NCBI RefSeq assembly: GCF_003119115.1
Contig: NZ_CP022366.1
Coordinates: 542,001-606,000 of the forward strand
Source: Azospirillum sp. TSH58
GTDB lineage: Bacteria; Pseudomonadota; Alphaproteobacteria; Azospirillales; Azospirillaceae
Reading direction: 5' to 3'
Length of the DNA stretch: 64,000 nucleotides
Shown: positions 11,294 through 58,817 of the stretch, in pieces
Layout of the letters: each line of letters begins with the position of its first letter
Numbering within the stretch: position 1 is the stretch's first letter
Made by a program: the position numbers and the translations under genes
The notes under the pieces: model-generated
What the model saw: the letters and a program-made list of their open reading frames with translations, nothing else
Databases searched by the model: none
What the model was told of the DNA's origin: nothing

Positions 11294-11330
11294 CCCCCCT
11301 GAACGGGGCCTTGACCGCCGTTCAGGGGGG
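11294..11330 (-). other. Strong hairpin between the WHEHI gene and the LuxR-type gene
   Basis: A perfect 13-bp inverted repeat, CCCCCCTGAACGG (11294-11306) and CCGTTCAGGGGGG (11318-11330), with an 11-base loop. On the minus strand it follows the WHEHI gene by 82 bases and precedes the regulator start by 41 bases. No U-run follows on either strand, so a classical terminator is not supported; an mRNA leader structure, a processing site or a regulator-binding site fits as well. Confidence 0.7.
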
Positions 11331-11412
11331 CGTCGCGAAGCGCGCTGCCGTTCGAACGAATTTAGCAGAAAACCGGCCGTATCATGCAACGCTCAATACG
11401 ATGGTATGACGC

Positions 11413-12081: not shown

Positions 12082-12094
12082 GCACCCCTCCTGC

Positions 12095-12215
12095 ATACCC
12101 GAGTGTATCTTAGTACCGGTTGTGCAAGTGCTCAAGAGCATATCGCGTATTTGTATTGAATCTGAACGATCAATTCTTCGGAATTGCATGCATACGCAAT
12201 CCATTTCGCGGGAAT
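12095..12215. promoter_or_regulatory. AT-rich promoter region upstream of the WHEHI locus
   Basis: About 120 bases clearly richer in A/T than surrounding DNA, placed just upstream of the strong start at 12081 on the minus strand. It holds an imperfect dyad ATTGC-N8-GCAAT (12183-12200) and the word TATGCAT (minus strand, 12188-12194), also present upstream of the binding-protein operon at 10125-10131. The rest of 12216-12376 shows no gene or clear signal. Confidence 0.35.
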
Positions 12216-12376
12216 CATGGTTTGGGGCCCCGCTTCGCAGGGAAGGGGAGGGCGCGGCCTCGCGATCACCTCTTCGTTTGAAGCCCGCGCGCAAACCATG
12301 GGTCCGCGCTGACGCGGCAGGCCGATCTTCGGTCCGTCGGGGGCGGGGAAGGGCCGGGACAGAGGGCGGACGTCGC

Positions 12377-13084: not shown

Positions 13085-13221
13085 CCCTGCCTGCCTTCCG
13101 TCCGCCGGACCCGTTCCGCCCGAAGCTCCGGAACGAATTTTACGCGGTCCGGTCGAAAAGTTCCAACCGCGTGGATCCGTCACGGTCGGTATCCCGTATC
13201 CTGTCCTACCCCCTTTCCCAT

Positions 13222-13233
13222 GTTGCGCGCAAC
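13222..13233. promoter_or_regulatory. Perfect 12-bp palindrome between Crp/Fnr and bphP genes
   Basis: GTTGCGCGCAAC reads the same on both strands and sits inside the divergent intergenic region. It could be an operator for the neighbouring Crp/Fnr protein, although it does not match the FNR box. The remaining intergenic sequence (13085-13421) is AT-richer and presumably contains both promoters. Confidence 0.35.
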
Positions 13234-13421
13234 GAAAGGCAATCTATATGACCAATCGCTTATGCCCTTGTTCTGAAGTGGTATTGTTTCAGTCTCCTGC
13301 CGTTGATAACCAAAGAGATGCCCGCCAAGCCAAACATTCGACATTATCTGAAATCATCGAATAGACCGGACAGCGAGCAGGGCATTAAGGAGCGACCTAT
13401 TGGATTGTCTTTGTTCTTGGA

Positions 13422-36426: not shown

Positions 36427-37548
36427 ATGAACGAGACGACGGGTAAACAGGGACTTCACGCCGCTTTGACCGGCGGCATCAGCCGGCGCGCCGTTCTGGC
36501 CGGAGCGGGCACGCTGGCCACGGTGGCCGCCATCGGCTTTCCGAACATCGTCCGCGCCCAGTCGAAGACGCTGAAGGTCGGCGTCTACGGCGGCTACTTC
36601 AAGGAATCCTTCGAAAAGCACATCTTCCCGGAATTCTCCAAGGCCACCGGCATCACGGTGGAGGCCATCGCCGAGCCGACCGGCGAGGCGTGGCTGGTCC
36701 AGCTCGAACAGGCGGCCCGCGCCCGTCAGGCGCCAGCCGACGTCTCGATGATGTCGCAGGTGGCGATGCTGAAGGGGGCCTCGGCGGAGCTTTGGGCGCC
36801 CTTCGACCTGTCGAAGATTCCCAACGCCGCCAAGGTCGTCCCGCACCTCGTCAACAAATACCCGGACGGCAAGGTCAGCGGCATCGGCGCGGTGTCCTGG
36901 TACATCACGCTGGTCACCAACACCAAGAGCTACCCGCAGGCCCCGGACAGCTGGGCGGCGCTGTGGGACCCGGCGAACAAGGACAAGCTCGGCCTGCTGG
37001 CGCTGGTCAGCAACAGCTTCCTGCTGGAGGTCACGGCGGCGACCTTCTTCGGCGGCACCAAGCATCTCGACAGCGAGCAGGGGCAGATCGACTGCTTCAA
37101 GAAGCTGGCGGAGCTGAAGTCCAACGTGAAGCTCTGGTACCGAGACGAGGCGCAGTTCGAGGCCTCGCTGAAGTCCGGCGAGATCCCGATGGGCCAGTAC
37201 TACCACGACGTGACCGGCCTCGCCGCCGCGGACGGGCAGCCGGTGCGCTCGACCTTCCCGAAGGAGGGCGGCATCCTCGATTCGGGAAGCTGGGCGGTCA
37301 CCCGCGCCTCCAAGGCCGGCGACCTCGCCCACGTCTTCGTGGACTACATGTGCCAGCCATCGATCCAGGCTCTGCTGTCGCGCAAGGTCGGCACCGCCCC
37401 GACCATCGACCGCAAGCTGACCGACCTGACCGATCAGGAGTTCGCCGCCGTGTCCTCCGACATCGCGCCGATCATCCCGCGCTACGACCTCTACACGAGC
37501 AAGTCCGACTGGCTGAACCAGAAGTGGACGGAAATGATCGTCGGGTGA
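36427..37548 (+). CDS. Polyamine-type ABC transporter substrate-binding protein (PotD/PotF class)
   Basis: A 373-residue periplasmic binding protein with a Tat-type signal (GGISRRAVLAGAGTLATVAA ending near VRAQ). The mature part has the SBP_bac_8/PotD-like layout: LKVGVYGGYFKESFEKHIFPEF, then DVSMMSQVAML, GAVSWYITLVTNT and SWAALWDPANKDKLG. The gene is first in an operon with an ATPase, two permeases, a ureohydrolase and an amidase. Together these point to import of a guanidino or polyamine compound such as agmatine or 4-guanidinobutyrate, but the ligand is inferred. A palindromic element (37556-37690) separates it from the ATPase gene. Confidence 0.9.
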   Translation: MNETTGKQGLHAALTGGISRRAVLAGAGTLATVAAIGFPNIVRAQSKTLKVGVYGGYFKESFEKHIFPEFSKATGITVEAIAEPTGEAWLVQLEQAARARQAPADVSMMSQVAMLKGASAELWAPFDLSKIPNAAKVVPHLVNKYPDGKVSGIGAVSWYITLVTNTKSYPQAPDSWAALWDPANKDKLGLLALVSNSFLLEVTAATFFGGTKHLDSEQGQIDCFKKLAELKSNVKLWYRDEAQFEASLKSGEIPMGQYYHDVTGLAAADGQPVRSTFPKEGGILDSGSWAVTRASKAGDLAHVFVDYMCQPSIQALLSRKVGTAPTIDRKLTDLTDQEFAAVSSDIAPIIPRYDLYTSKSDWLNQKWTEMIVG

Positions 37549-37555
37549 GTGAGAG

Positions 37556-37690
37556 CCCTTCTCCCCTCTGGGGAGAAGGGTTGGGATGAGGGGGCGGCCG
37601 CAGGCCGACCACGCCGGCTCATTGCCGTGCGTGGACGCCCTGACGGGCGCCCCCTCACCCTGACCCTCTCCCCAGGGGGGAGAGGGGATA
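37556..37690. repeat. Palindromic intergenic element, copy 1
   Basis: A 135-bp element bounded by short hairpins. The left end is CCCTTCTCCCC (37556-37566), loop TCT, GGGGAGAAGGG (37570-37580). The right end is CCCTCTCCCC (37664-37673), loop AGG, GGGGAGAGGG (37677-37686). Inner arms GATGAGGGGG-like and CCCCCTCACCC-like can pair with each other. Its centre differs from the other copies. It lies inside a transporter operon, between binding protein and ATPase genes. Confidence 0.85.
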
Positions 37691-37718
37691 TACAGCTCCA
37701 ATCAAAATAAGTTTGCCC

Positions 37719-38780
37719 ATGTCAGCCCTTGTCCTCGACGGTCTCACCAAACGATACGGTCCCGTGACCGCGGTGCACGGCGCGTCGCTGCGCATCCCGC
37801 ACGGGCAATTCGTCTGCCTGCTCGGCCCGTCCGGCTGCGGGAAGACGACGCTGCTGCGCATGATCGCCGGGCTGGAGGACCCCTCCGGCGGACGGCTGGT
37901 CATCGACGGGCGCGACATCACCACGGCCCCCGCCCACACGCGGGAATTCGGGATGGTGTTCCAGTCGCTGGCCCTCTTCCCGCACCTGACGGCGGGCGAG
38001 AACATCGCCTACCCCCTGCGCATCCGCGGCGCCACGAAGGCCGAGCAGCGCAAGCGCGCCGACGAGCTGCTGGAACTGGTCCGCCTGCCCGGCGTGGCCG
38101 ACCGGCCGGTCTCCAAGCTGTCGGGCGGGCAGCGGCAGCGCGTCGCCATCGCCCGCGCGCTGGCCCTGTCGCCCAAGCTGTTCCTGCTGGACGAGCCGCT
38201 GTCGGCGCTCGACGCCAAGCTGCGCGAGGCCATGCAGATCGAGCTGAAGCAGCTTCAGCAGCGGCTGGGCATCACCACCATCGTCGTCACCCACGACCAG
38301 CGGGAGGCGATGACCATGGCCGACCTCGTGGTGGTGATGTCGCAGGGCCGCATCCATCAGGCCGCCCCGCCGATGGAGGTCTACCGCCAGCCCGCCGACG
38401 CCTTCGTCGCCGACTTCATCGGCATGACCAACCTGCTGGAGGGCGAGGTGACCGCCCCCGGCACCGCCGCCGTGCCCGGCGGCGCCCTGCATCTGCCCGA
38501 CCTGCCGCCGACCGGCCGCGTCCTGCTGTCCGTCCGCCCGGAGGACGTGATCGTCCACCCCGCGGGCACCGACGGGCCGAACCGGCTGACCGGCACGCTG
38601 TCCTTCATGCGCGACCTCGGCGCCAGCGTGGAGTTCCGCATCGACGTGGCCGGGCGGGAGATCGTCGCCCTGACCCGCCCGCAGGACCGCCCGCCGGTCG
38701 CCCCCGGCGGCGCCCTGGCAGTGGAGTTCCCCCCGGCGGCCTGCGTCGTGCTGCCCCCGATGGGCGAGAGGGTCCCATGA
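37719..38780 (+). CDS. Polyamine-type ABC transporter ATPase (PotA/PotG class)
   Basis: A 353-residue ATPase. Walker A is GPSGCGKTTLL (about 36), the Q-loop is MVFQSLALFPHLTAGEN, the ABC signature is LSGGQRQRVAIARAL, Walker B is LFLLDEPLSALDAKLRE and the switch His is in VVTHDQREAM. The C-terminal 110 residues form the TOBE domain typical of PotA-like proteins. I prefer ATG 37719; a TTG at 37713 is in frame. The stop overlaps the first permease gene (ATGA). It powers uptake through the two permeases that follow. Confidence 0.94.
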   Translation: MSALVLDGLTKRYGPVTAVHGASLRIPHGQFVCLLGPSGCGKTTLLRMIAGLEDPSGGRLVIDGRDITTAPAHTREFGMVFQSLALFPHLTAGENIAYPLRIRGATKAEQRKRADELLELVRLPGVADRPVSKLSGGQRQRVAIARALALSPKLFLLDEPLSALDAKLREAMQIELKQLQQRLGITTIVVTHDQREAMTMADLVVVMSQGRIHQAAPPMEVYRQPADAFVADFIGMTNLLEGEVTAPGTAAVPGGALHLPDLPPTGRVLLSVRPEDVIVHPAGTDGPNRLTGTLSFMRDLGASVEFRIDVAGREIVALTRPQDRPPVAPGGALAVEFPPAACVVLPPMGERVP

Positions 38781-39631
38781 TCCGCCGCGCGCCCCGCGGT
38801 CTGGCCGAGCACGCGCCGATCCTCTTCCCGGCGCTGATGCTGGTCGTCTTCTTCGTCATCCCCTTCAGCCTGATGATCGCGGTCAGCGTCTTCCGGCGCG
38901 TGCCCGGCGGCTTCTACGAGCCGGACCTCGTCTTCGCCAACTACGAGCGGTTCCTGACCGCCTTCTTCGGCGGGGTGATGTCCTTCTCGCTGGGGCTGGC
39001 GGCGCTGGTCGCGGCGCTGTCGGTGGGCATCGCCTTCCCCTTCACCTACCGGCTGGTGAAGCTGTCGCGCGGCGCGCAGATCCGCTGGCTAGTCTTCCTG
39101 CTGTCGATCCTGTCGCTGTCGGAAGTCATCATCGGCTTCGCCTGGTCCACCCTGCTGTCGCGCACGGCGGGCATCACCAACCTGTTCGTGGCGCTGGGCC
39201 TGATGGCCGAGCCGCAATCCCTCAGCCCGAGCTTCGGCGCGCTGCTGGCCGGGCTGGTCTATCAGGCCTTCCCCTACACGGTGCTGGTGCTCTACCCGGC
39301 GCTCGCCCGCCTCGACCCCTATCTGGAGGAGGCGGCGCGCACGCTCGGCTCCTCGCCGCTGCGCGCCTTCTTCACGGTGGTGGTTCCGGCGCTGCGCAAC
39401 ACCATCGTGGCGACCACGATCATGGTGTTCGTCTTCGCGCTCGGCTCCTACCTGCTGCCGCAGCTTCTGGGACGGCCCCAGCACTGGACGCTGTCGGTGC
39501 TCATCACCGATCAGGCGATCTACCAGTCCAACATGCCCTTCGCGGCGGCCATGGCCGTCTTCCTGGTGCTGGTCAGCCTCGCCCTCGTCGGGCTGGCGCT
39601 GCTCGCCGGGCGGCGGGAGGAGACGGCCTGA
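38777..39631 (+). CDS. Polyamine-type ABC transporter permease (PotB class)
   Basis: A 284-residue permease with six hydrophobic segments. The first follows a short cytoplasmic N-terminus (ILFPALMLVVFFVIPFSLMI). The EAA motif that docks to the ATPase is DPYLEEAARTLGSSPLRAFFTVVVPALR near residue 175. It starts within the ATPase stop codon and its own stop (TGATG) overlaps the next permease by one base. It heterodimerises with the PotC-class protein. Confidence 0.94.
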   Translation: MIRRAPRGLAEHAPILFPALMLVVFFVIPFSLMIAVSVFRRVPGGFYEPDLVFANYERFLTAFFGGVMSFSLGLAALVAALSVGIAFPFTYRLVKLSRGAQIRWLVFLLSILSLSEVIIGFAWSTLLSRTAGITNLFVALGLMAEPQSLSPSFGALLAGLVYQAFPYTVLVLYPALARLDPYLEEAARTLGSSPLRAFFTVVVPALRNTIVATTIMVFVFALGSYLLPQLLGRPQHWTLSVLITDQAIYQSNMPFAAAMAVFLVLVSLALVGLALLAGRREETA

Positions 39632-40431
39632 TGCTGATGCGCACGCTGAATTCCCTGGCCGCCGGCCTGATCGCCCTGGTCCTGTCGGCGCCGATCCTGG
39701 TGGTGGCCGGCGTCTCGGTGAACGAGAAGAAGGCGCTGACCTTCCCGCCGCAAGGCTTCTCGCTCGCCTGGTACGCGGAGGTCTTCACCGACCCCGGCTG
39801 GCGCGGCGCGCTCGTCACCAGCCTCGTCGTCGCCACCCTGTCGGCGGCGCTGGCGGTGCTGATCGCCTTCCCGCTGGCCTGGTTCCTGTGGCGCTGGCGC
39901 GCGCCCTGGGCACGGACGTTCGAGGTGCTGGGCATGACGCCCTTCATCCTGCCGCCGGTCATCACCGCCCTGGGATTCCTCAGCTTCTGGGCGGCGGTCG
40001 GCGAATACGGGTCGCCCTGGACGGTGGTGGTCAGCCACGCGGTGTTCTTCGTGACGCTGCCGCTGGTCACGCTGTCGCTGGGCTTCGGGGCGGTGGACCG
40101 CTCCTACGTCGAGGCGGCGGCGACCATGGGGGCGGACGACCGGACGGTGCTGCGCACGGTGGTGATGCCGCTGGTGCGGCCCTACGTCATCTCGGGCTTC
40201 GCCTTCGCCTTCGTGCTGTCGCTGAACGAGTACATCGTGGCCTACATGGTGGTCGGCTTCACGCTGGAGACGCTGCCCATCAAGATCTTCAACGCACTCC
40301 GCTACGGCTACACCCCGACCATGGCCGCGGTGACGGTGCTGTTCGTGTCGCTGACGGCGGTGGTCTTCGGGCTGATCGCGTGGTTCGGCGACCTGCCCCG
40401 CCTGCTCGGCGCCTGGGCCAAGAACGACTGA
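39631..40431 (+). CDS. Polyamine-type ABC transporter permease (PotC class)
   Basis: A 266-residue permease with six hydrophobic segments and the PotC-type periplasmic opening (GVSVNEKKALTFPPQGFSL, then WYAEVFTDPGWRGAL). The EAA motif is SYVEAAATMGADDRTVLRTVVMPL near residue 150. It is translationally linked to the previous gene through a TGATG junction. The ureohydrolase gene follows after 44 bases, so catabolic genes are probably cotranscribed with the transporter. Confidence 0.94.
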   Translation: MLMRTLNSLAAGLIALVLSAPILVVAGVSVNEKKALTFPPQGFSLAWYAEVFTDPGWRGALVTSLVVATLSAALAVLIAFPLAWFLWRWRAPWARTFEVLGMTPFILPPVITALGFLSFWAAVGEYGSPWTVVVSHAVFFVTLPLVTLSLGFGAVDRSYVEAAATMGADDRTVLRTVVMPLVRPYVISGFAFAFVLSLNEYIVAYMVVGFTLETLPIKIFNALRYGYTPTMAAVTVLFVSLTAVVFGLIAWFGDLPRLLGAWAKND

Positions 40432-40475
40432 CATCCAAGAACGACCGACACCCTTTTCTCAGAGAGATTCGGACG

Positions 40476-41531
40476 ATGATCGACCCTCAGAAGCTTGATC
40501 GTTTGCGTACGAAGTACAGTGGCTCCGGCGGCGACGACTTCCACGATCCGGAGTTCCAGCGGGTGGCCGCCCTCCAGTTCTCCGGCGGCAAGCGGGTCCA
40601 GCCCTTCGCCGGGGTGTCCACCCTGCTCGACGCCCCCTACCGCCCCGACGCGGCGGAGGCCGCGGACTTCGGCGGGCTGGACATCGCGTTGATCGGCGTG
40701 CCGATGGACCTGGGAGTCACCAACCGGGCCGGCGCCCGCCTCGGCCCGCGCGCCGTGCGCGGGATGGAGCGCATCGGCCCCTACGAGCACGCCCTGCGCA
40801 TGGTCCCGGCGGCGTCCTGCAAGCTGGCCGACGTCGGCGACGTTCCGCTGTCCAGCCGCTTCAGCCTGGAGGCGTGCCACGGCGACATCCTGGCCTTCTA
40901 CAACCGCGTGATGGACGCGGGCGTCATCCCGCTGTCGGTGGGCGGCGACCATTCCATCACCTATTCGATCCTGAAGGCGCTGGGCCGCGAACGCCCGGTG
41001 GGCATGATCCATTTCGACGCCCATTGCGACACCGGCGGCCCCTACGAGGGCGCCAAGTTCCACCATGGCGGCCCCTTCCGGCAGGCGGTTCTGGACGGCG
41101 TCCTGGACCCGGAGCGCACGGTGCAGATCGGCATCCGCGGCAGCACGGAGTATCTGTGGGAGTTCTCCTACGACAGCGGCATGACCGTGATCCACGCGGA
41201 GGACATCCCGGAGCGCGGCATCGCCAGCGTCATCGAGACGGCGCGCAAGGTGGTGGGCAACGGGCCGGTCTACGTCTCCTTCGACGTGGATTGCCTGGAC
41301 CCGGTCTTCGCCCCCGGCACCGGCACGCCGGAGGTCGGCGGCCTGACCACGCGGGAGGCGCTGGCGATCCTGCGCGGGCTCGACGGGCTGGACATCGTCG
41401 GCGGCGACGTGGTGGAGGTGGCGCCCCAGTACGACGCCACGACCAACACCGCCCACGCCGGCGCGCAGATGCTGTTCGAAATCCTCTGCCTGTCGGTGCG
41501 CGCCCTCGCCAACCGCCAGGACCGAGGCTGA
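40476..41531 (+). CDS. Ureohydrolase (agmatinase/guanidinobutyrase-like)
   Basis: A 351-residue metalloenzyme of the arginase/agmatinase fold that removes urea from a guanidino group. Metal ligands are readable: His159 in SVGGDHS, Asp181/His183/Asp185 in HFDAHCD, and the two aspartates of SFDVDCLDP. It has an N-terminal extension of about 60 residues beyond E. coli agmatinase, a feature of guanidinobutyrase/guanidinopropionase-type and guanidine-hydrolase-type enzymes as well. Start 40476 excludes a long upstream overlap with the permease gene. Neighbours are a transporter and a nitrilase-fold amidase 4 bases downstream. Family is certain; substrate is not. Confidence 0.92.
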   Translation: MIDPQKLDRLRTKYSGSGGDDFHDPEFQRVAALQFSGGKRVQPFAGVSTLLDAPYRPDAAEAADFGGLDIALIGVPMDLGVTNRAGARLGPRAVRGMERIGPYEHALRMVPAASCKLADVGDVPLSSRFSLEACHGDILAFYNRVMDAGVIPLSVGGDHSITYSILKALGRERPVGMIHFDAHCDTGGPYEGAKFHHGGPFRQAVLDGVLDPERTVQIGIRGSTEYLWEFSYDSGMTVIHAEDIPERGIASVIETARKVVGNGPVYVSFDVDCLDPVFAPGTGTPEVGGLTTREALAILRGLDGLDIVGGDVVEVAPQYDATTNTAHAGAQMLFEILCLSVRALANRQDRG

Positions 41532-41535
41532 CGGC

Positions 41536-42342
41536 ATGCGGCTGAGCCTGCTCCAGGCGGACGCGGAGCCCGGTGCGCCGGACCGCAACCTCGACCGTCT
41601 GGAGCGGGCGGCGGTGGAGGCGGCGGGGCGCGGCTCCGCCCTGCTGGTCGGGCCGGAGATGGGCCTGACCGGCTACGCCATCGGCGCGGAGGCGGTGCGC
41701 GCCCTCGCCGAGCCAGCGGACGGGCCAATGGCCGCGCGGGTCGCCGCCATCGCCCGGCGGCACGGCATCGCGCTGCTCTACGGCTACCCGGAGCGGGGGA
41801 TGGACGGCGCCGTCCACAACGCGGCGCAACTGATCGGGGCGGATGGGCGGCCCCTGCTGAACCAACGCAAGACGCATCTTTACGGCGATCTCGACCGCGG
41901 CTCCTTCGCGCCGGGCGGCGACGCCTTCCCGACCGCCGAGGTCGGCGGCATGCGGGTTGGCGTCGTCATCTGCTACGACGTGGAGTTCCCGGAACTGGTG
42001 CGCCGCCACGCGCTGGCCGGGGTGGATCTGTTGCTGGTGCCAACCGCGCTGATGGCACCCTACGAGATCGTCGCCACCACCATCGTCCCCGCCCGCGCCT
42101 TCGAGAACGGCCTCTTTGTCGTCTACGCCAACCGCTGCGGGCGCGAGGGGACATTGCGCTATTGCGGGCTCAGCAGCGTAGCGGCGCCGGACGGGTCGGT
42201 GCTGGCGCGGGCCGGCGAGGACGAGGCGCTGCTGACCGTCGATCTCGACCCCGCGTTGCGCCGGGTCGGCACGCATCTGGCGGACCGCCGCCCGGACCTG
42301 TACGGTGCGGTCTCCAGCGCGCCTGGGAAGGGCGGTTTGTAG
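41536..42342 (+). CDS. Nitrilase-superfamily amidase (carbon-nitrogen hydrolase)
   Basis: A 268-residue cytoplasmic hydrolase. The Glu-Lys-Cys triad is visible: Glu41 in VGPEMGLTGY, Lys in NQRKTHLYGD near residue 114, and Cys in VVICYDVEFPE near 146. These enzymes hydrolyse amides such as N-carbamoylputrescine, omega-amides or 4-guanidinobutyramide. Being 4 bases after the ureohydrolase, it likely acts in the same route; hydrolysis of 4-guanidinobutyramide before or after urea release would be coherent. That pathway placement is inference. Confidence 0.9.
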   Translation: MRLSLLQADAEPGAPDRNLDRLERAAVEAAGRGSALLVGPEMGLTGYAIGAEAVRALAEPADGPMAARVAAIARRHGIALLYGYPERGMDGAVHNAAQLIGADGRPLLNQRKTHLYGDLDRGSFAPGGDAFPTAEVGGMRVGVVICYDVEFPELVRRHALAGVDLLLVPTALMAPYEIVATTIVPARAFENGLFVVYANRCGREGTLRYCGLSSVAAPDGSVLARAGEDEALLTVDLDPALRRVGTHLADRRPDLYGAVSSAPGKGGL

Positions 42343-42356
42343 AGGAAGCACAGGAC

Positions 42357-43601
42357 ATGCCGGTCACCATCGACGACATTCACGCCGCCGCCGAACGGCT
42401 GGCCGGACGGATCAGCCGCACGCCCTTCCTGCGCTCCGAAACCCTGTCGCAGATCACCGGCGCCGAGGTCTGGGTCAAGCTGGAGAACCTCCAGTTCACC
42501 GCGTCCTTCAAGGAGCGCGGGGCGGCCAACCGGCTGCTGCACCTGACGCCGGAGGAGCGGCAGGCCGGGGTGATCGCCATGTCGGCCGGCAACCACGCCC
42601 AGGCCGTGGCCTACCACGCGAAGCGGCTGGGCATCGCGGCGACCATCGTCATGCCGCGCTTCACCCCCTTCGTGAAGGTCAAGCGCACGCGCTACCACGG
42701 CGCCACCGTCATCCTGGAGGGCGAGTCCCTGGCCGAGGCCGCGGCCTTCGCCCACGACCTCGCCAAGCGGGACGGGCTGGTCTTCGTCCATCCCTACGAC
42801 GACGACGCGGTGATCGCCGGCCAGGGCACCGTCGTGCTGGAGATGCTGGCGGAGGTGCCGGACCTCGACGCGCTGGCCATCCCGGTCGGCGGCGGCGGGC
42901 TGGCCGCCGGGGCCGCGGTCGCCGCCCGCGCGCTGCGGCCCGGCCTGGAGGTCGTCGGGGTGGAGGTGGAGACCTACCCCGCCGCGGCGCAGCGCCTCGC
43001 CGGGCAGCCGGTCAAGGTCGGCGGCCCGACCGTGGCGGAGGGCATCGCCGTGCGCGACGTCGGCGACCGGCCCATCGACATCCTGAGGCAGAACGGCTGC
43101 GACGTGGTGCTGGTCCCCGAGGCGGTGATCGAGCGCGCCATCGCCATGCTGATCGAGGTGGAGAAGACCGTCGCGGAGGGCGCCGGAGCCGCCGGGCTGG
43201 CCGCCCTGCTCTTCCACCCCGAGCGTTTCCGCGGCAAGCGGGTCGGCCTGATCGTGTCGGGCGGCAACATCGACACGCGCACGCTGGCGAATGTGCTGAT
43301 GCGCGGCTTCGCCCGCGACGGCCGCCTGATCAACCTGGACATCGACGTGGCCGACCAGCCCGGCGCGCTGGCCCAGGTGGCCCGCATCGTGGCGGAGTGC
43401 GGCGGCAACATCATCGACGTGCAGCACCAGCGCCTGTTCGGCGCCTTCTCCGTCAAGTCCGCCGAGGTCGCCCTGCTGATCGAGGTGGAGGACGAGGGCC
43501 ACGGCGACCGCATCACCGAAGCCCTGCGCGGCGCCGGCCTGCCCGTCCGCAAGGCGGTGGTGGCGGAAGCCGCGCAACCGCTGTCCAGCGCGCGGCCCTG
43601 A
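42357..43601 (+). CDS. Threonine/serine dehydratase with ACT domain
   Basis: A 414-residue PLP enzyme of fold type II. The Schiff-base lysine is Lys52 in TASFKERGAANR; the phosphate-binding loop is PVGGGGLAAG near 180. SAGNHAQAVAYHAKRLG is the serine-binding segment. A C-terminal ACT domain (about 325-400; LDIDVADQPGALAQVARIVAE) implies feedback by an amino acid. It deaminates threonine to 2-oxobutyrate or serine to pyruvate. IlvA is usually longer with two ACT-like modules, so this is the shorter catabolic or regulatory type. It ends the transporter/ureohydrolase operon, 14 bases after the amidase gene; its tie to guanidino catabolism is unclear. Confidence 0.93.
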   Translation: MPVTIDDIHAAAERLAGRISRTPFLRSETLSQITGAEVWVKLENLQFTASFKERGAANRLLHLTPEERQAGVIAMSAGNHAQAVAYHAKRLGIAATIVMPRFTPFVKVKRTRYHGATVILEGESLAEAAAFAHDLAKRDGLVFVHPYDDDAVIAGQGTVVLEMLAEVPDLDALAIPVGGGGLAAGAAVAARALRPGLEVVGVEVETYPAAAQRLAGQPVKVGGPTVAEGIAVRDVGDRPIDILRQNGCDVVLVPEAVIERAIAMLIEVEKTVAEGAGAAGLAALLFHPERFRGKRVGLIVSGGNIDTRTLANVLMRGFARDGRLINLDIDVADQPGALAQVARIVAECGGNIIDVQHQRLFGAFSVKSAEVALLIEVEDEGHGDRITEALRGAGLPVRKAVVAEAAQPLSSARP

Positions 43602-43630
43602 GCGAAAGTCTGTCACATACGGCGGAATAA

Positions 43631-43751
43631 CCCTCTCCCCTCTGGGGAGAGGGTGGCCCGGAGGGCCGGTGAGGGGGTTGCGCTTTTGCCGGACGATCCG
43701 CCACGCGCAGCCCCCTCACCCTAACCCTCTCCCCAGAGGGGAGAGGGGATA
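43631..43751. repeat. Palindromic intergenic element, copy 2
   Basis: A 121-bp element: end hairpin CCCTCTCCCC-TCT-GGGGAGAGGG, then TGGCCCGGAGGGCCGGTGAG, a spacer, CCCCCTCACCCTAACC, and a closing hairpin CCCTCTCCCC-AGA-GGGGAGAGGG. The inner G- and C-tracts are complementary, so the whole folds as one long stem with hairpin tips. It lies between the dehydratase and the permease gene. It lacks the 66-69 base cassette seen in copies 3 and 4 after GGCCCGGAGGGCC. Confidence 0.88.
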
Positions 43752-43897
43752 TAGGCCTGCCCATGGATTGAGCATCCCTCCCGAACACCGCTGCTTTTCG
43801 CGGCACATCCCGGGGTGCCGCGCATGGATATCCCGCCCTACCGGTTGTGGCACGGGCCATGCACTTCGCGCCTGTTCATTCGCGGAGGTCATGGATC

Positions 43898-45259
43898 ATG
43901 TCGTCGCTGGAGTCTTCAACCGCACCCCACCCGGTTGACGAAAAGCTTCCGCTGCTGCGCCTGCTGGCGCTGGGCATGCAGCATGTGATGGTGATGTACG
44001 CAGGGGCCATCGCCGTGCCGCTCATCATCGGCGGCGCGCTGAAGCTGCCCAAGGACCAGATCGCCCTGCTCATCAACGCCGACCTGTTCGCCTGCGGCAT
44101 CGTCACGCTGATCCAGACACTGGGCTTCTGGAAGTTCGGCATTCGCCTGCCGGTGATGATGGGCGTCACCTTCGCCGCGGTCGGGCCAATGGTCGCCATG
44201 GCGGGAAACCCCTCGCTGGGGCTGCTGGGCATCTACGGCGCGGTGATCGGGGCCGGCGTCTTCGCCACGCTGGCGGCACCGCTGGTCGGGCGCCTGCTGC
44301 CGCTGTTCCCGCCGGTGGTGACGGGGACGGTCATCGCCATCATCGGCATTTCGCTGATGCGGGTGGGCATCACCTGGGCCGGCGGCGGCGCCGGGAACCC
44401 GAACTTCGGCGACCCGCTCTATCTCGGCATCGCGCTGTTCGTGCTGGCGGTGATCCTGCTGGTGACCAAATACGCCAAAGGCTTCTGGGCGAACATCTCG
44501 GTCCTGCTGGGCATCGTCGCGGGCTTCGCCCTGACCATGGTGCTCGGGCTGGTCAGCTTCGACGGGGTGGGACAGGCCAAGTGGGTGGACGTGATCTACC
44601 CGTTCCAGTTCGGCATGCCGGTGTTCGAGTTCTGGTCGATCCTGACCATGTCGCTGGTGATGATCGTCGTGATGATCGAGTCCACCGGCATGTTCCTGGC
44701 GGTGGGCGAGATGGTCGGCCGCCCGGTGACGCCGGAGCAACTGACCCGCGGCCTGCGCACGGACGGGCTGGGCACGCTGATCGGCGGCGTCTTCAACACC
44801 TTCCCCTACACCTCCTTCTCGCAGAATGTCGGGCTGGTCGGGATCACCGGGGTGCGCAGCCGCTGGGTCTGCGTGGCGGGCGGCGTCATCCTGATCGCCT
44901 TCGGCCTGTTCCCGAAGCTGGCGCACGTCGTCGCCTCCGTCCCCACCTATGTGCTGGGCGGGGCCGGGCTGGTGATGTTCGGCATGGTCGCGGCGACCGG
45001 CATCAAGATCCTGGCGAAGGTCGATTACACGGCCAACCGCGGCAACATCTACGTCGTCGCCATCAGCATCAGCCTGGGCATGGTGCCGCTGGTCGCCGAC
45101 AAGATCTTCCAGAAGATGCCGCCCTTCCTGTCGCCGCTGCTGCACAGCGGCATCCTTCTGGGCACCATCGCGGCGGTCCTGCTGAACCTGTTCTTCAACG
45201 GGATGGGCAAGGCGGACGCGAAGGAGTTCGTCGCCGCCGCCAAGACCGCGGAGGCGTAA
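43898..45259 (+). CDS. Nucleobase:cation symporter-2 family permease (uracil/xanthine/urate type)
   Basis: A 453-residue inner-membrane carrier with about 12-14 hydrophobic segments. NCS2 marks include LGMQHVMVMYAGAIAVPLI in the first segment, the ESTGMFLAVGE motif in segment 8 and the signature QNVGLVGITGVRSRWV near residue 310. The start at 43898 is preceded by GGAGG at suitable distance; an in-frame ATG at 43847 adds 17 residues before it. Substrate is probably a purine, given the GVRSR variant, but uracil cannot be excluded. It stands between two palindromic elements and probably has its own promoter. Confidence 0.93.
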   Translation: MSSLESSTAPHPVDEKLPLLRLLALGMQHVMVMYAGAIAVPLIIGGALKLPKDQIALLINADLFACGIVTLIQTLGFWKFGIRLPVMMGVTFAAVGPMVAMAGNPSLGLLGIYGAVIGAGVFATLAAPLVGRLLPLFPPVVTGTVIAIIGISLMRVGITWAGGGAGNPNFGDPLYLGIALFVLAVILLVTKYAKGFWANISVLLGIVAGFALTMVLGLVSFDGVGQAKWVDVIYPFQFGMPVFEFWSILTMSLVMIVVMIESTGMFLAVGEMVGRPVTPEQLTRGLRTDGLGTLIGGVFNTFPYTSFSQNVGLVGITGVRSRWVCVAGGVILIAFGLFPKLAHVVASVPTYVLGGAGLVMFGMVAATGIKILAKVDYTANRGNIYVVAISISLGMVPLVADKIFQKMPPFLSPLLHSGILLGTIAAVLLNLFFNGMGKADAKEFVAAAKTAEA

Positions 45260-45276
45260 GGGGACGAACCGTTTAG

Positions 45277-45463
45277 CCCTCTCCCCCCTGGGGAGAGGGT
45301 GGCCCGGAGGGCCTCTCGCGCTGGCTGAAAGCCCGCGCTGACGGCGACAGGCGGATGCCTCTGGCATCCGCTGAGAGCCGGTGAGGGGGTTGCGCATCGC
45401 GGGACGTCCGGCAAATGCACAACCCCCTCACCCTAACCCTCTCCCCGGAGGGGAGAGGGGATA
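45277..45463. repeat. Palindromic intergenic element, copy 3 (with internal cassette)
   Basis: The ends match copy 2. Between GGCCCGGAGGGCC (45301-45313) and GGTGAGGGGG (from 45380) there is an additional 66-base cassette (45314-45379) containing its own dyad GCGGATGCC-TCT-GGCATCCGC. It lies between the convergent NCS2 permease and aldehyde dehydrogenase genes, where it could serve as a bidirectional terminator. Confidence 0.88.
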
Positions 45464-45483
45464 ATAGTCACCACTTCAGCCCC

Positions 45484-46923
<1,440 letters not shown>

Positions 46924-47048
46924 CTCTAATCCCCTCGCTCTCTGCGTTGGCGTTTTCGGGTGAAGCGATCCTGCCCCGTCCGGAGCCGTTTGCCAAAGCT
47001 TTCCATTGGGAAAAACCGGATAGGTCAGAAGACCGGACCCTGTTGACA

Positions 47049-47079
47049 GTTCAATGGTTTCACGGTCTGATCGTTGAAC
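47049..47079. promoter_or_regulatory. Dyad GTTCAA-N19-TTGAAC in divergent promoter region
   Basis: GTTCAA (47049-47054) and TTGAAC (47074-47079) form an inverted repeat immediately after a TTGACA element (47043-47048), upstream of the dpp-type binding protein. The rest of 46924-47205 has no gene; it is comparatively AT-rich and presumably holds the promoters of the aldehyde dehydrogenase (minus) and transporter (plus) genes. Confidence 0.35.
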
Positions 47080-47205
47080 ACATACGTGCCGCCGCACCTT
47101 TTGCGGCGCGCCGAACGACAAGAATCGGGCCGCAGCAACCGCGGTCCAAGGGCTGGGAGCCTGCTTCACGGATACAATTCAAACGTACAATCAGGGGGAC
47201 GAGGG

Positions 47206-48867
47206 ATGGCCTTACGTGATCGGCATTGGCGTGATCGACGTCTTGCGGGTGTGCTGCGTTCCGGAATCGTCAAACCACTCCTGCCGGCGGCCGCGGCCCT
47301 GGCCCTGCTGGCCGCCGTCCCGGCGCCGGGCCAAGCCGCGACCCTGACGGTCGGGACCTCGGCGGAGCCGAGCGCGCTCGACCCGCACTACCACAACCTC
47401 GGCCCCAACACGCGCGCCCGCAAGCATGTGTTCGAATCGCTGGTCAGCATGGACGCCAAGATGCGGCTCCAGCCCGAACTGGCGGAAAGCTGGCGCGCCG
47501 TCGACGAGACAACCTGGGAATTCAAGCTGCGCAAAGGCGTGAAGTTCCACGACGGCACGGAGTTCACGGCGCAGGATTTCGTCTACACGGTCTGCCGCAT
47601 CCCGAACGTCGCCAACAGCCCCTCCTCCTTCACCGTCTACACCAAGGGCATCGCGGGGATCGAGGCGCCGGACCCGCACACCCTCGTCATCAGGACCGGC
47701 AAGCCCTACCCGCTGCTGCCGGTGGAGCTGTCGACCTTCGGCATCATCTCCGCCAAGGCGGCGGGCGGCGAGGCGGTGACCTTCGACAAGGCGGGCTGCA
47801 AGGCCGATTCCTGGCCGACCACCCAGGCCTTCAACGACGGCTCCCTGATGATCGGCACCGGGCCGTTCAAGCACAAGTCCTACACCAAGGGCGACCGGCA
47901 AATCCTGGAGCGCAACCCCGATTACTGGGGGCCGCAGGCCGCCTGGGACACGGTGGTCTTCCGCCCGATCACCAGCGACGGGCCGCGCGTCGCCGCCCTG
48001 CTGGCCGGCGACGTGGACATCATCGAATCGCCCCCGGTGCAGGACATCGAGCGGCTGAAGTCCGCCCCCAACGTCTCCTTGGCCCAGGCCCAGTCGAACC
48101 GCGTAATCTATCTGGCGTTGGGCGTGCAGGACACCCCGCCGACCATCACCGGCACCGACGGCAAGAACCCGCTGAAGGACCCGAAGGTGCGCAAGGCGCT
48201 GTCGCTGGCGGTGGACCGCGACGCCATCGTGAAGCGCATCATGATGGGCGTGGCGGAGCCGGCGAACCAGTACCTCCCCGCCGGCTTCTACGGCAACAAC
48301 CCGGAGGTCACGGTCGCCACCGACGCGAACAAGGCCAAGCAGCTCCTGGCCGAGGCCGGCTATCCGAAAGGCTTCCAGCTCACGCTCGGCACGCCGAACG
48401 ACCGCTACATCAACGACGACAAGGTGGCCCAGGCGGTCGCCCAGATGTTCACCCGCATCGGCGTCCAGACGCAGGTCGACGCGACCACCGCCAACGTCTT
48501 CTTCTCCAAGCGCAACAAGCAGGAATACAGCGTCTTCCTGGCCGGCTGGGGCGCCGATTCGGGCGAGATGTCCTCGCCGCTGAAGGCGCTGATCGCCACG
48601 CCGATCAAGGAGAAGGGCTACGGCACCACCAACTACACCAGCTACTCCGACCCGGAGCTGGACGGCATGCTGGACACCGCGCTGGCGACCGTGGACGACG
48701 CCAAGCGGGAAAAGCTGCTCCAGGACGCGGTGAAGCGGGCGATGGACGCCGACATCATCATCCCCCTGCATTACGAGGTGACGGTGTGGGCGATGAAGAA
48801 GGGGCTGAGCTACGAACCGCGCGCCGACCAGTACACGCTGGCGCAGAAGGTGACCCCCGCGAAGTGA
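47206..48867 (+). CDS. Periplasmic binding protein of dipeptide-type ABC transporter
   Basis: A 553-residue SBP_bac_5 protein. The signal peptide ends around PAPGQAA-TLTVG. Family features: SAEPSALDPHYHNLGPNTRARKH, the WEFKLRKGVKFHDGTEFTAQDF block near residue 130, GTGPFKHKSYTKGD near 215 and RKALSLAVDRDAIVKRIM near 330. The start at 47206 follows GGGGGACGAGGG and leaves a 30-residue basic n-region before the hydrophobic core, longer than usual; a later start is possible. It begins an operon with two permeases and two ATPases ending in an M20 deacylase, so peptides or acylated amino acids are likely ligands. Confidence 0.93.
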   Translation: MALRDRHWRDRRLAGVLRSGIVKPLLPAAAALALLAAVPAPGQAATLTVGTSAEPSALDPHYHNLGPNTRARKHVFESLVSMDAKMRLQPELAESWRAVDETTWEFKLRKGVKFHDGTEFTAQDFVYTVCRIPNVANSPSSFTVYTKGIAGIEAPDPHTLVIRTGKPYPLLPVELSTFGIISAKAAGGEAVTFDKAGCKADSWPTTQAFNDGSLMIGTGPFKHKSYTKGDRQILERNPDYWGPQAAWDTVVFRPITSDGPRVAALLAGDVDIIESPPVQDIERLKSAPNVSLAQAQSNRVIYLALGVQDTPPTITGTDGKNPLKDPKVRKALSLAVDRDAIVKRIMMGVAEPANQYLPAGFYGNNPEVTVATDANKAKQLLAEAGYPKGFQLTLGTPNDRYINDDKVAQAVAQMFTRIGVQTQVDATTANVFFSKRNKQEYSVFLAGWGADSGEMSSPLKALIATPIKEKGYGTTNYTSYSDPELDGMLDTALATVDDAKREKLLQDAVKRAMDADIIIPLHYEVTVWAMKKGLSYEPRADQYTLAQKVTPAK

Positions 48868-48890
48868 ACGGAGCGAGCGCCGCCCTCTTT

Positions 48891-49078
48891 CCCTCTCCCC
48901 TCCGGGGAGAGGGTTAGGGTGAGGGGGTTTGCGCTTTTGCCGAACGCTCCGCAACGCGCATCCCCCTCACCGGCTCTCAGCGGATGCTGTAGGCATCCGC
49001 CTGCCGCCGTCAGCGCTGGCGGCCTTCGGCCAGCGCGAAAGGCCCTCCGGGCCACCCTCTCCCCCGAGTGGAGAAGGT
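48891..49078. repeat. Palindromic intergenic element, copy 4 (inverted, with internal cassette)
   Basis: This copy lies in the opposite orientation to copy 3. Reading its complement gives GGCCCGGAGGGCC (49041-49053) followed by a 69-base cassette (48972-49040) that closely matches the cassette of copy 3, including the GCGGATGCC/GGCATCCGC dyad. The outer right hairpin is degenerate (CCCTCTCCCCCGAGTGGAGA). It sits inside an operon, between binding-protein and permease genes. Confidence 0.87.
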
Positions 49079-49097
49079 TAGATATTAGCGGAGCGCC

Positions 49098-50075
49098 ATG
49101 CTTGTCTTCATCCTCCGGCGGCTGGCGCAGAGCGCGGTCGTCGTGGTGGCGATGTCGGTGCTGGTCTTCGCCGGCATCTTCGCCATCGGCAACCCCATCG
49201 ACGTGCTCATCAGCCCGGAGGCCGATGAGTTCGAGCGCGCCGCCGCCATCGCCCGGCTGGGGCTCGACAAGCCGATGCACGAGCAGTTCCTGCGCTTCGT
49301 GGAAAGCGCCGTCGGCGGCGACCTCGGCACCAGTTTCGTTCATGGGGTGCCGGCCCTCGGCCTCGTCCTCCAGCGCTTTCCGGCGACGCTGGAGCTGGCG
49401 CTCTGCGCCATGCTGGTGGCGGTGGTGCTGGGCATCCCGCTGGGGCTGTGGGCCGGGCTGAAGCCGGACTCCCTGGCCGGGCGGGTCATCATGACCGGCT
49501 CGATCCTGGGCTTCTCGCTGCCCACCTTCTGGGTCGGGATGATGCTCATCATGGCCTTCGCGGTGACGCTGGGCTGGCTGCCGGCGGGCGGGCGCGGCGA
49601 GACGGCCGGCCTGTTCGGCGTGCAGTGGAGTTTCCTGACCGCCGACGGGCTGGCCCATCTGATCCTGCCCGCCGTCAATCTGGCCCTGTTCAAGCTGTCG
49701 CTGGTCATCCGTCTGGCCCGCGCCGGCACGCGGGAGGTCGCCTTGCAGGACTATGTGAAGTTCGCCCGCGCCAAGGGGCTGGCGCCCGCGCGGGTGGTCG
49801 GGGTGCACATCCTGAAGAACATCATGATCCCGGTGGTCACCGTGCTGGGGCTGGAGTTGGGCAGCGTCATCGCCTTCTCGGTGGTCACGGAATCGGTCTT
49901 CGCCTGGCCGGGCATGGGCAAGCTGCTGATCGACAGCATCCTCCAGCTCGACCGGCCGGTGGTGATCGCCTATCTGCTGGTGACGGTTCTGCTGTTCGTC
50001 GTCATCAACCTGATCGTCGATCTGGTCTATTCGCTGCTCGACCCGCGAATCCGGCTGGGCGGGGGGCGGGCATGA
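49098..50075 (+). CDS. dppB: Dipeptide-type ABC permease (DppB class)
   Basis: A 325-residue permease. It starts MLVFILRRLAQSAVVVVAMS, the typical DppB opening, and has six hydrophobic segments. VGGDLGTSFVHG is near residue 75, and the EAA region is YVKFARAKGLAPARVVGVHILKN. It ends DLVYSLLDPRIRLGG, the family's conserved tail. Its stop overlaps the DppC-class start (ATGA). The palindromic element just upstream separates it from the binding-protein gene but the operon probably continues through it. Confidence 0.94.
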   Translation: MLVFILRRLAQSAVVVVAMSVLVFAGIFAIGNPIDVLISPEADEFERAAAIARLGLDKPMHEQFLRFVESAVGGDLGTSFVHGVPALGLVLQRFPATLELALCAMLVAVVLGIPLGLWAGLKPDSLAGRVIMTGSILGFSLPTFWVGMMLIMAFAVTLGWLPAGGRGETAGLFGVQWSFLTADGLAHLILPAVNLALFKLSLVIRLARAGTREVALQDYVKFARAKGLAPARVVGVHILKNIMIPVVTVLGLELGSVIAFSVVTESVFAWPGMGKLLIDSILQLDRPVVIAYLLVTVLLFVVINLIVDLVYSLLDPRIRLGGGRA

Positions 50076-57632: not shown

Positions 57633-58817
57633 TCAGGCGTATTGCGGCTCGACCCCGACGGCGAAGCTCAGATCGGCGCCGCGCAGCGTCTCCACCGTGG
57701 CGCGGATGCGCGTCAGGTCGGTGCCGTGCAGGATGGCGCGGGCGAGGCTGGTGTCGCGCAGATCCGCGCCGGTCAGGCTGGCCTCGGCGAGGTTGGTCGG
57801 CCACAGGCGGCTGCCGTCCCCGGCGAGGTCCACCGGGCGCAGCCGCGCCCGCCACAGCTTGGCCCCCGCCAGATTGGCGCCGCGCAGGTTGCAGCCGGAC
57901 AGGTCGGCGCTGGTGAAGTCCGCCTCGCGCAGGTCGCAGTAGGACAGGTCCGCCATCACCAGCTTCGCCCCGGAGAAATCCGCCCCGCGCAAGCCGCAGA
58001 AGCGCATCACGCAGCCGGCCAGGAGCTGGTTGGCGAAGTTGTAGCCGCGCAGGTCGACGCGCTGCATCTCCAGCCGCAGGCCGGCGGCGGCGTTGCGCTC
58101 GACCCAGAGCTGGTGGGCGGAAATGCTCTCGGCCATCCGCCCGGCGAGGCTCACCAGCCCGGTGCCGTCCACATCGATGCCGCGCCGCTCCAGCGTCTGG
58201 CGCAATTCGTCGTCCAGCCGGGCGCCGCACAGCAGGGCGCCCTGCATCTCCACCCGCTCCATCACCGCGCCGATCAGATTGGCGCCGATCAGGATCGTTC
58301 CGGTCATGTCGCTGCCGGAAAAGGTCGCCCCGGCCATGTCGCAGCCGGAAAAGTCGCATTGCGCCAAACGCGCGTCGGACAGGATGGCGCGGGCCATCTT
58401 GGACCCGATGAAGGTCGTGCTGCCGTCGGCGTTGCCCGCCGGCTTGCGCTCGTCGGCGCCCAGCATCATGCCCTTGCGCAGGTCGGCGCCCCGCAGGTTG
58501 GCCTCCTCCAGCGTGGCGCCCTCCACCCGCGCGCCGCGCAGGTCGGCGCTTTCCAGGGACGCGCCGGTGAGTTCGGCCTTCGACAGGTCGGCGCCGAACA
58601 GGTCGGTGCGCGACAGGTCGGCGCCGGTCAGCCGGGCGCTGCTCAGATTCGCCCCGCTGAGCTTGGCGCTGCTGAGGTTGATGCGGCGCAGCCCCAGGCC
58701 CGACAGGTTGTGGAAGCTGAGGTCGGCGCAACGGCCCTTCATGCTGGGGTCGCGCGTCAGCCATTGCTGATGCCGGACCAGCGCGTTGCGGATCGCCCTC
58801 AGATATCGCTCTTCCAC
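57633..58817 (-). CDS. Pentapeptide-repeat protein
   Basis: A 394-residue protein with two right-handed quadrilateral beta-helix zones built from A(D/N)LXX repeats: about residues 30-120 (LSGANLSSARLTGADLSRTD) and about 265-385 (LREADFTSADLSGCNLRGAN). A non-repeat segment near 195-265 holds WVERNAAAGLRLEMQ. I prefer the GTG at 58817 (GGAG upstream, conserved start VEERYLRAIRNALVRHQQWL); a GTG at 58892 has no ribosome site. Some members mimic DNA and protect gyrase, but most have unknown scaffolding roles. It converges with the BMP gene (6-base gap). Confidence 0.88.
   Translation of the reverse strand: MEERYLRAIRNALVRHQQWLTRDPSMKGRCADLSFHNLSGLGLRRINLSSAKLSGANLSSARLTGADLSRTDLFGADLSKAELTGASLESADLRGARVEGATLEEANLRGADLRKGMMLGADERKPAGNADGSTTFIGSKMARAILSDARLAQCDFSGCDMAGATFSGSDMTGTILIGANLIGAVMERVEMQGALLCGARLDDELRQTLERRGIDVDGTGLVSLAGRMAESISAHQLWVERNAAAGLRLEMQRVDLRGYNFANQLLAGCVMRFCGLRGADFSGAKLVMADLSYCDLREADFTSADLSGCNLRGANLAGAKLWRARLRPVDLAGDGSRLWPTNLAEASLTGADLRDTSLARAILHGTDLTRIRATVETLRGADLSFAVGVEPQYA

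What the first reader, a model, noticed from the sequence alone, without database searches (positions are those of the whole stretch)
37556..49078. Family of long palindromic intergenic elements with a mobile-looking internal cassette
Four elements (37556-37690, 43631-43751, 45277-45463, 48891-49078) share hairpin tips of the CCCTCTCCCC / GGGGAGAGGG type and complementary inner G- and C-tracts. Copies 3 and 4 carry a 66-69 base cassette with its own dyad, inserted at the same point after GGCCCGGAGGGCC, while copy 2 is uninterrupted there; copy 4 is in the opposite orientation. All four fall within 11.5 kb and none was seen elsewhere in the window. This looks like a REP/MITE-like family in two versions, one nested in the other. 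Two copies sit inside operons, where they could process or attenuate mRNA.
Basis: seen in the sequence. Interest (0 to 1): 0.75.

Follow-up and report, generated by a model that had tools for sequence, protein, structure and literature searches.

The report
BoxC repeats carrying nested double-hairpin inserts
Four long palindromes between genes of an Azospirillum replicon belong to a repeat family already known from E. coli (BoxC, a triplex-forming motif), and two of them carry a smaller two-hairpin repeat that sits at fixed points inside other palindromes and comes and goes between related strains.

Summary
One half of each of the four elements matches the published BoxC/PIT/TM_ECO intrastrand-triplex consensus exactly (4 matches, 0 in 100 shuffles). 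They are two such units face to face, an arrangement known from E. coli (PMC4666352). They are not local: 68 strict consensus copies lie in this genome, and 43 of 45 genus genomes searched have some.

The cassette is a separate module: two covarying hairpins and a linker, found in loop 2 of BoxC units, at BoxC-like hairpin tips, and in an unrelated multi-hairpin repeat (72 copies parsed). At element 4 it is present in two genomes and absent, with the host pair intact, in four relatives. The RAYT idea fails: this genome has no Y1 transposase.

Sites turn over quickly: pair, pair with module, solo tip, another palindrome family, or none. Elements lie downstream of genes and avoid divergent gaps (2 of 70). 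I read them as transcribed 3' hairpins reshaped by recombination and palindrome-driven deletion; neither function nor mobility is shown. Known kind; I did not find the nested module described in the papers I could search.

The parts
37556..37690 (.). Element 1: BoxC-type inverted pair, divergent left tip; between a binding-protein gene (36427-37548, +) and an ABC ATPase gene (from about 37713, +)
   Evidence: (orthologous annotation); orthologous sites
37652..37686 (-). Strict TM_ECO/BoxC unit of element 1 (short loop 2 = TCA)
43631..43751 (.). Element 2: BoxC inverted pair without cassette, between threonine ammonia-lyase and nucleobase symporter genes (tandem, +)
   Evidence: (orthologous annotation)
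43654..43667 (+). Loop-2 hairpin TGGCCCGGAGGGCC of the partner (type-B-like) unit; the point where copies 3 and 4 carry the cassette
43713..43747 (-). Strict TM_ECO unit of element 2 (type A, loop 2 = TTA)
45277..45463 (.). Element 3: BoxC inverted pair with cassette, between convergent genes (symporter +, aldehyde dehydrogenase -)
   Evidence: orthologous annotation
45314..45376 (+). Cassette/module of element 3 (TCTC-hairpin 1-TGACGGCGACA-hairpin 2-GAGA, 63 nt)
45425..45459 (-). Strict TM_ECO unit of element 3 (type A)
48891..49078 (.). Element 4: BoxC inverted pair with cassette, reversed; between a family-5 binding-protein gene (ends 48867, +) and an ABC permease gene (from 49098, +)
48891..48925 (+). 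Strict TM_ECO unit of element 4 (type A)
48975..49040 (-). Cassette/module of element 4 (66 nt)

Best explanation
Each element is a head-to-head pair of BoxC (PIT, TM_ECO) units. A unit is a C-strand/G-strand hairpin followed, after loop 2, by a third G-rich strand; usually one unit has a short loop 2 (type A) and its partner a loop-2 hairpin. The cassette is a second repeat family, a module of two facing hairpins laid out like a REP dimer, nested at fixed points of BoxC units and other palindromes. Shown: identity, dispersal, nesting, presence/absence of the cassette at an orthologous site, rapid turnover, location downstream of genes. Inferred: (1) turnover comes from palindrome-driven deletion between the two tips, which leaves a solo tip, and from ectopic recombination or conversion among many near-identical copies, which swaps interiors, modules and whole palindrome families; (2) transcribed copies act as 3' hairpins that limit exonuclease decay or set unequal expression, perhaps especially between a binding-protein gene and the genes of its membrane partners. 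How new sites are seeded is unknown.
For: Identity: strict TM_ECO consensus in all four elements, 68 copies in this genome, 43 of 45 genus genomes. Nesting: 72 modules parsed; automatic classes 47 tip, 16 BoxC loop 2, 7 multi-hairpin host, 2 other. Hairpin 1: 69 of 72 modules have 8-9 bp arms with at most one mismatch; their 16 distinct arm pairs keep 7.3 of 8 pairs (at least 7 by that selection) against 5.0 when arms are exchanged. Polymorphism: at element 4 the cassette is in the window and G001; G003, G005, G006 and G008 have the pair without it. Solo tips: element 2 in G004, G007, G015, G019, G038 and MTCC4038; element 3 in G009 and G015 and MTCC4035. In 400-kb chromosomal pieces of four genomes (236-297 kb aligned per pair), 10 of 13 clean indel sites involve BoxC-like elements, modules or multi-hairpin repeats (sites grouped by eye). 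Location: of 71 cores, 0 in predicted genes, 51 tandem, 17 convergent, 2 divergent, 1 unclear. At element 4 a palindrome with an arm of at least 10 bp is kept in 16 of 16 close genomes although two families alternate; two distant genomes have 24- and 37-nt gaps without one. Binding-protein families are upstream of 9 of 47 tandem copies; in 7 of these 9 the next gene is a transporter membrane or ATPase component.
Against: No expression data were available. PIT elements showed no promoter or terminator activity and no effect on RNA polymerase in earlier work, as told in PMC4666352. Avoiding divergent gaps could simply mean that insertions near promoters are removed. Close genomes are not independent trials, and at element 1 a perfect arm of at least 10 bp is in only 14 of 17 intervals (2 of 19 sources gave none). 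The binding-protein bias is weak: with equal limits (E up to 1e-8) it is 9 of 47 upstream against 3 of 47 downstream, one-sided P 0.06 (downstream genes with a family at 1e-12 were not rescanned); at 1e-12 it is 8 against 2, P 0.045. Its genome base rate was not measured. Conversion is inferred from states, not from mapped tracts.
Confidence: 0.58

Rival explanations
1. REPIN-like elements moved by a REP-associated tyrosine (Y1/HUH) transposase.
For: Inverted pairs of palindromes, intergenic location and high copy number resemble REPINs (general knowledge; PMC3116915 seen only as a search listing).
Against: No Y1_Tnp match in this genome, whereas 5 of 14 control genomes ring, E. coli and Caulobacter among them. 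Of 30 genomes chosen as close relatives or as carriers of the BoxC core, 6 have one; G003 and G005, with 100 and 123 strict units, have none. PMC3733652 reports the same lack of a dedicated transposase for CGTC repeats.
Confidence: 0.04
2. The module is an actively transposing non-autonomous element whose enzyme, acting in trans, targets hairpin apices or loops at a GC dinucleotide and duplicates it.
For: At element 4 the empty GGGCCGG becomes GGGCC-module-GCCGG. In G015, CCGC^TTTGCGG becomes CCGC-module-GCTTTGCGG. The 5' flanks end in GC (45) or GCC (24) in 69 of 72. Several host types.
Against: The 3' GC was part of the search expression, so it is not evidence. CCCCTCCGGGG tips have no GC to duplicate. 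Hairpin-2 subtype is tied to host position: 47 of 47 in the tip class short, 16 of 16 loop-2 and 7 of 7 multi-hairpin long, with one exception by eye (L300, put in the tip class but lying in a loop 2). Orientation is constant where visible. This suggests few founding events. No naked module was seen.
Confidence: 0.15
3. DNA-level role: the units form triplexes or cruciforms that stall forks and promote rearrangement; the sequence is kept for, or merely tolerated despite, that effect.
For: TM_ECO oligonucleotides fold into triplexes in vitro and their loci are more variable among E. coli strains (PMC4666352). Here sites are highly variable. At element 3 synteny breaks in G001, G003, G004 and G008; in the last three the two flanks lie about 55-60 kb apart in opposite orientation.
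Against: In vivo footprinting in E. coli did not support stable triplex formation (PMC4666352). In G003 the left breakpoint shows no BoxC and the right only a solo tip, so the element as cause is unproved. A pure DNA role does not predict avoidance of divergent gaps.
Confidence: 0.2
4. Intrinsic transcription terminators.
For: GC-rich hairpins close to gene ends; 17 of 70 between convergent genes (P 0.003 against the background stretch).
Against: No terminator-like site (hairpin plus T-tract) at any of the four elements, and elements 1 and 4 lie inside apparent transporter operons.
Confidence: 0.05

Closest known systems
BoxC / PIT / TM_ECO intrastrand-triplex repeats (E. coli, Enterobacter and others; PMC4666352)
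   Same: Exact strict consensus; inverted pairs; unlike loop-2 types in most pairs; intergenic; copy number varies greatly between relatives; sites unstable.
   Different: The partner unit often has a loop-2 hairpin of 13-14 nt or more instead of three bases, and units carry nested modules. The word Azospirillum does not occur in that paper's text.
CGTC-tagged REPs (PMC3733652; its figure 2 includes A. lipoferum, which I take to be Azospirillum lipoferum)
   Same: The module is two facing hairpins of mostly 7-9 bp with CGTCA (opposite strand) next to hairpin 1 in 61 of 72, in an alpha-proteobacterium; that paper finds no dedicated transposase and reports REP dimers inserted within palindromes.
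   Different: Stems do not begin with the two complementary A-T positions described for CGTC repeats, and the outer ends are TCTC/GAGA-type, not CCA. Its figures and supplements were not seen.
Composite short repeats with internal inserts: Correia/NEMIS 107/155-bp forms (passages of PMC2229807); ERIC with about 70-bp inserts (recalled)
   Same: Long and short versions of one palindromic repeat, often transcribed.
   Different: Here the insert is itself a family found in several unrelated hosts.
malE-malF REP sequences of E. coli (recalled)
   Same: Palindrome between a binding-protein gene and membrane-component genes; mRNA-stabilising role there.
   Different: Different sequence family; no functional test here.

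Membership tests
BoxC / TM_ECO | Consensus CCCTCNCCC N3-6 GGGNGAGGG N3 GGGNGAGGG | tested here: met
   One unit of each of the 4 elements, no mismatch; 0 in 100 shuffles
BoxC / TM_ECO | Intergenic location | tested here: met
   0 of 71 distinct cores inside genes predicted by my own caller
BoxC / TM_ECO | Inverted pairs made of unlike loop-2 types | tested here: inconclusive
   27 facing pairs: 19 short loop with loop hairpin (6 of them with cassette), 4 short/short, 4 short/other, 0 hairpin/hairpin. The rule mostly holds, but 4 pairs break it and the loci were found mainly with type-A queries
BoxC / TM_ECO | Triplex formation | not testable with these tools
   Shown in vitro for E. coli sequences only (PMC4666352)
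REPIN/RAYT system | Associated Y1 tyrosine transposase | tested here: not met
   0 matches to PF01797 in the window's genome; 5 of 14 controls ring
CGTC-tagged REP (for the module) | Tag CGTC, TGTC or CCTC next to the stem | tested here: inconclusive
   CGTCA on the opposite strand beside hairpin 1 in 61 of 72; CGAC/CGGC-like letters beside hairpin 2
CGTC-tagged REP (for the module) | Complementary A-T at the first two stem positions and a CCA-like tail | tested here: not met
   Stems begin mostly GC (hairpin 1) or GGCGG (hairpin 2); outer ends are TCTC/GAGA-type
MITE | Target-site duplication of constant length | tested here: inconclusive
   GC or GCC repeats at some module ends; none clear for whole BoxC pairs
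Intrinsic terminator | Hairpin followed by T-tract | tested here: not met
   No site at the four elements

The most novel reading that the evidence does not exclude
The module is a new kind of miniature element that inserts at a GC dinucleotide at the apex of pre-existing palindromes (hairpin-in-hairpin targeting), moved by a non-HUH recombinase acting in trans, so that bacterial 3' hairpins grow by successive nesting.
Probability: 0.12. Interest if true: 0.75.

Novelty: new variant of a known kind. Interest (0 to 1): 0.42.

Why it matters
BoxC has been known since the 1990s (as told in PMC4666352) without an agreed origin or function. Azospirillum offers many copies per genome, a set of close relatives, and sites in all states (none, solo, pair, nested, replaced), so how such palindromes spread, shrink and acquire inserts becomes directly testable. 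The swap of one palindrome family for another in the same binding-protein/permease gap, with a hairpin always kept among the close relatives examined, is a natural experiment on whether hairpin shape rather than sequence is selected in 3' regions.

Tried and rejected
Rejected: RAYT mobilisation; Rfam membership (window 37000-50000: 6 hits at E up to 1, all below gathering scores; the two mir-3151 hits and the mir-H20 hit overlap copies 1 and 2); intrinsic termination; confinement to this locus; the cassette as a BoxC-only insertion/deletion variant (it occurs in other hosts). By my reading, 19 of the 119 are true modules (paired hairpin 2 and a TGACG-like linker), 18 titled Azospirillum and 1 'Roseomonas genomospecies 6'; the other 100 look like chance matches. 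Genus restriction is therefore likely, not proved. Within the genus the module core was found in 37 of 45 genomes, not all; G011 has 15 strict BoxC units and no module match. BoxC core without mismatch was in 15 of 289 genomes sampled over the class, two of them in this genus.

Limits. The 71 cores, 95 units and 47 neighbour genes come from loci L001-L112, brought in by copy 2, the type-A core, the cassette and the module core, so type-B-only elements are under-sampled; one search scored 40 of 221 candidates, and searches gave loci for 30 places each. The background for gene gaps is one 400-kb chromosomal stretch with genes called by my own simple codon-usage caller. Of 51 tandem copies, 47 distinct upstream genes were scanned. 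The module expression misses some copies (13 of the 16 loop-2 copies of this genome are in it). By eye, L300 and L363 lie in loop 2 of the other palindrome family, L377 at a tip, and L255 is unclear. One search failed part-way; its finished lines were kept (71 of 72 modules with a hairpin 1, 72 of 72 with a hairpin 2) and the rest was redone. The 31 pairwise indel events were grouped into 13 sites by eye; one search's output was cut and the missing sites were printed.

Literature. PMC4666352: outline, parts 1-5 of 10, section 19 and part 1 of 2 of section 20. PMC3733652: abstract, passages, sections 7, 14 and 15. PMC2229807 and PMC2267715: passages. Other papers: search listings only. 'Not found described' rests on the ten searches; no supplements and no figures were seen.
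Full report
The observation. The four elements are present as described, and window-wide pattern searches find the core and the strict consensus only there, with no match in shuffled sequence. Copies 3 and 4 carry the cassette at the same point, and copy 4 is reversed. Copy 1 is the most divergent. RNA folds of copies 1, 2 and 4 are far more stable than shuffles (z -14.1, -12.9, -9.3).

What the element is. A literature search for the core letters led to Holder et al. 2015 (PMC4666352; read in part), which describes the E. coli BoxC or PIT repeat as an intrastrand triplex motif, TM_ECO. One unit of each window element fits its consensus without mismatch. In E. coli K-12 the five inverted pairs each combine a loop-2 type A with a type B unit (PMC4666352). 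Here 27 facing pairs comprised 19 short-loop units paired with a loop-2 hairpin (6 of them with cassette), 4 short/short, 4 short/other and no hairpin/hairpin (5.3 of the last expected, P 0.003), with the caveat that loci were found mainly with type-A queries.

Copy number. With up to two mismatches the type-A core occurs 117 times in the window's genome, none in the reversed control. The strict consensus occurs 68 times here and up to 149 times in a relative (G036), and in 43 of 45 genus genomes. In a spread sample of the class 15 of 289 genomes had the core without mismatch.

The cassette. A search with the cassette alone returned 25 matches. Sixteen (L061-L076) lie in the loop-2 position of BoxC pairs; several others share only its second half and lie in different palindromes. 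A pattern for its core gave 27 matches in this genome and matches in 37 of 45 genus genomes. Parsing the loci held gave 72 distinct modules from this and other genomes: 47 classed as tip, 16 as BoxC loop 2, 7 in a multi-hairpin host, 2 other. By eye L300 (tip class) and L363 (other) lie in loop 2 of a second palindrome family, L377 (other) at a tip, and L255 is unclear. The plan is TCTC, hairpin 1, TGACG-type linker (61 of 72), hairpin 2, GAGA. In 69 of 72 modules hairpin 1 has arms of 8-9 bp with at most one mismatch; their 16 distinct arm pairs keep 7.3 of 8 pairs (at least 7 by that selection), against 5.0 if arms are exchanged, and several stem positions show G-C, A-T and reversed pairs. 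The long hairpin 2 is in 16 of 16 loop-2 and 7 of 7 multi-hairpin copies, the short one in 47 of 47 of the tip class, L300 being the exception by eye. In the tip class a third-strand-like tract is on the 3' side in 36 of 47 and on the 5' side in 0. L285 has both module types in one element. I read this as a few founding insertions followed by spread of composites.

Orthologous sites. Element 2: pair in the window, Az39, MTCC4035, G003, G006, G008, G009, G037 and G042 (the last with a tip module); solo tip in G004, G007, G015, G019, G038 and MTCC4038; absent in G001; G005 unresolved at a contig end. Element 3: BoxC pair in the window (with cassette), Az39 and G005; another palindrome family in G006, G007, G038, G042; solo tip in G009, MTCC4035, G015; about 630 bp of other sequence in G019 and G037; broken synteny in G001, G003, G004, G008. 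Element 4: cassette in the window and G001; pair without cassette in G003, G005, G006, G008; degenerate loop 2 in G004; short module in the tip instead in Az39 and G015; another palindrome family in MTCC4035, G007, G009, G019, G037, G038, G042. In 400-kb chromosomal pieces of four genomes (G000, G003, G015, G004; 236-297 kb aligned per pair) 31 pairwise clean indels fall into 13 sites by eye; 10 involve these palindromes or modules and 3 do not. One is a short module in a tip of G015 where relatives have the plain tip; another a 174-bp multi-hairpin insert in G004 that carries a module.

Mobility. The window's genome has no Y1 transposase, and 24 of 30 chosen genomes have none, so RAYTs do not explain the family now. 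Whole BoxC pairs show no clear target duplication. Modules are often flanked by GC or GCC on both sides, but the 3' GC was part of my search expression. Solo tips are what a deletion between the two tips would leave; PMC4666352 describes a similar 'palindrome effect' in E. coli.

Position and likely function. Of 71 distinct cores none is in a predicted gene, 51 are between tandem genes, 17 convergent, 2 divergent and 1 unclear. Divergent gaps hold 36% of intergenic bases in the background stretch (chance of 2 or fewer of 70 about 1e-11, or 2e-7 by number of gaps). PMC3733652 reports the same preference for other REPs. Among 47 upstream genes of tandem copies 9 match periplasmic binding-protein families; downstream 3 of 47 do at the same limit (one-sided P 0.06), so the bias is only suggestive. 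In 7 of the 9 the next gene is a transporter membrane or ATPase component. Elements 1 and 4 have that arrangement; element 4 (L075) is one of the 9, element 1 is not among the 47. At element 4 all 16 close genomes examined keep a palindrome with an arm of at least 10 bp though two families alternate, while distant G010 and G028 have short gaps without one; at element 1, 14 of 17 intervals have such an arm. No T-tract follows the four elements. I therefore favour transcribed 3' hairpins that protect or process mRNA; this is inference.

Against my reading. Earlier work told in PMC4666352 found no promoter or terminator activity for these motifs and no function. The related genomes are not independent. 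A DNA-level role in instability remains open, and the rearrangement next to element 3 in G003, G004 and G008 (flanks about 55-60 kb apart, opposite orientation) would fit it, though in G003 only a solo tip was seen at one breakpoint.

Verdict. A known repeat (BoxC), with a nested REP-dimer-like module that I did not find described, and unusually informative site turnover. New variant of a known kind.

Noticed in passing
window about 45266 (element 3) against G003 C7 564098-567865 / 624268-627815, G004 C4 447305-450942 / 502563-506041, G008 C5 69165-72931 / 10625-14180: The two flanks of element 3 lie about 55-60 kb apart and in opposite orientation in these genomes, as if one inversion breakpoint fell at the element.
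   Followed up: partly
G000 C2 loci L077-L080; G004 insertion at the place matching about G000:C2:674765: A separate repeat of about 174 bp made of several successive hairpins that carries the same module, cleanly inserted in one of four chromosomes compared.
   Followed up: partly
Elements 1, 3 and 4 in several relatives (L113, L115, L147, L148, L151, L153-L156, L390-L396): A second palindrome family with CCCTCTCCCG..CGGGAGAGGG tips occupies the same gaps in other strains, apparently replacing BoxC pairs.
   Followed up: partly
G004, at the place matching about G000:C2:873100: A clean 224-bp insertion with internal CACGGATTTCACGG-type inverted repeats, another possible repeat family.
   Followed up: no
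window 57715-58718: Repeats of 15-base period (16 copies listed in family D1), probably pentapeptide-repeat coding sequence (the naming is mine).
   Followed up: no
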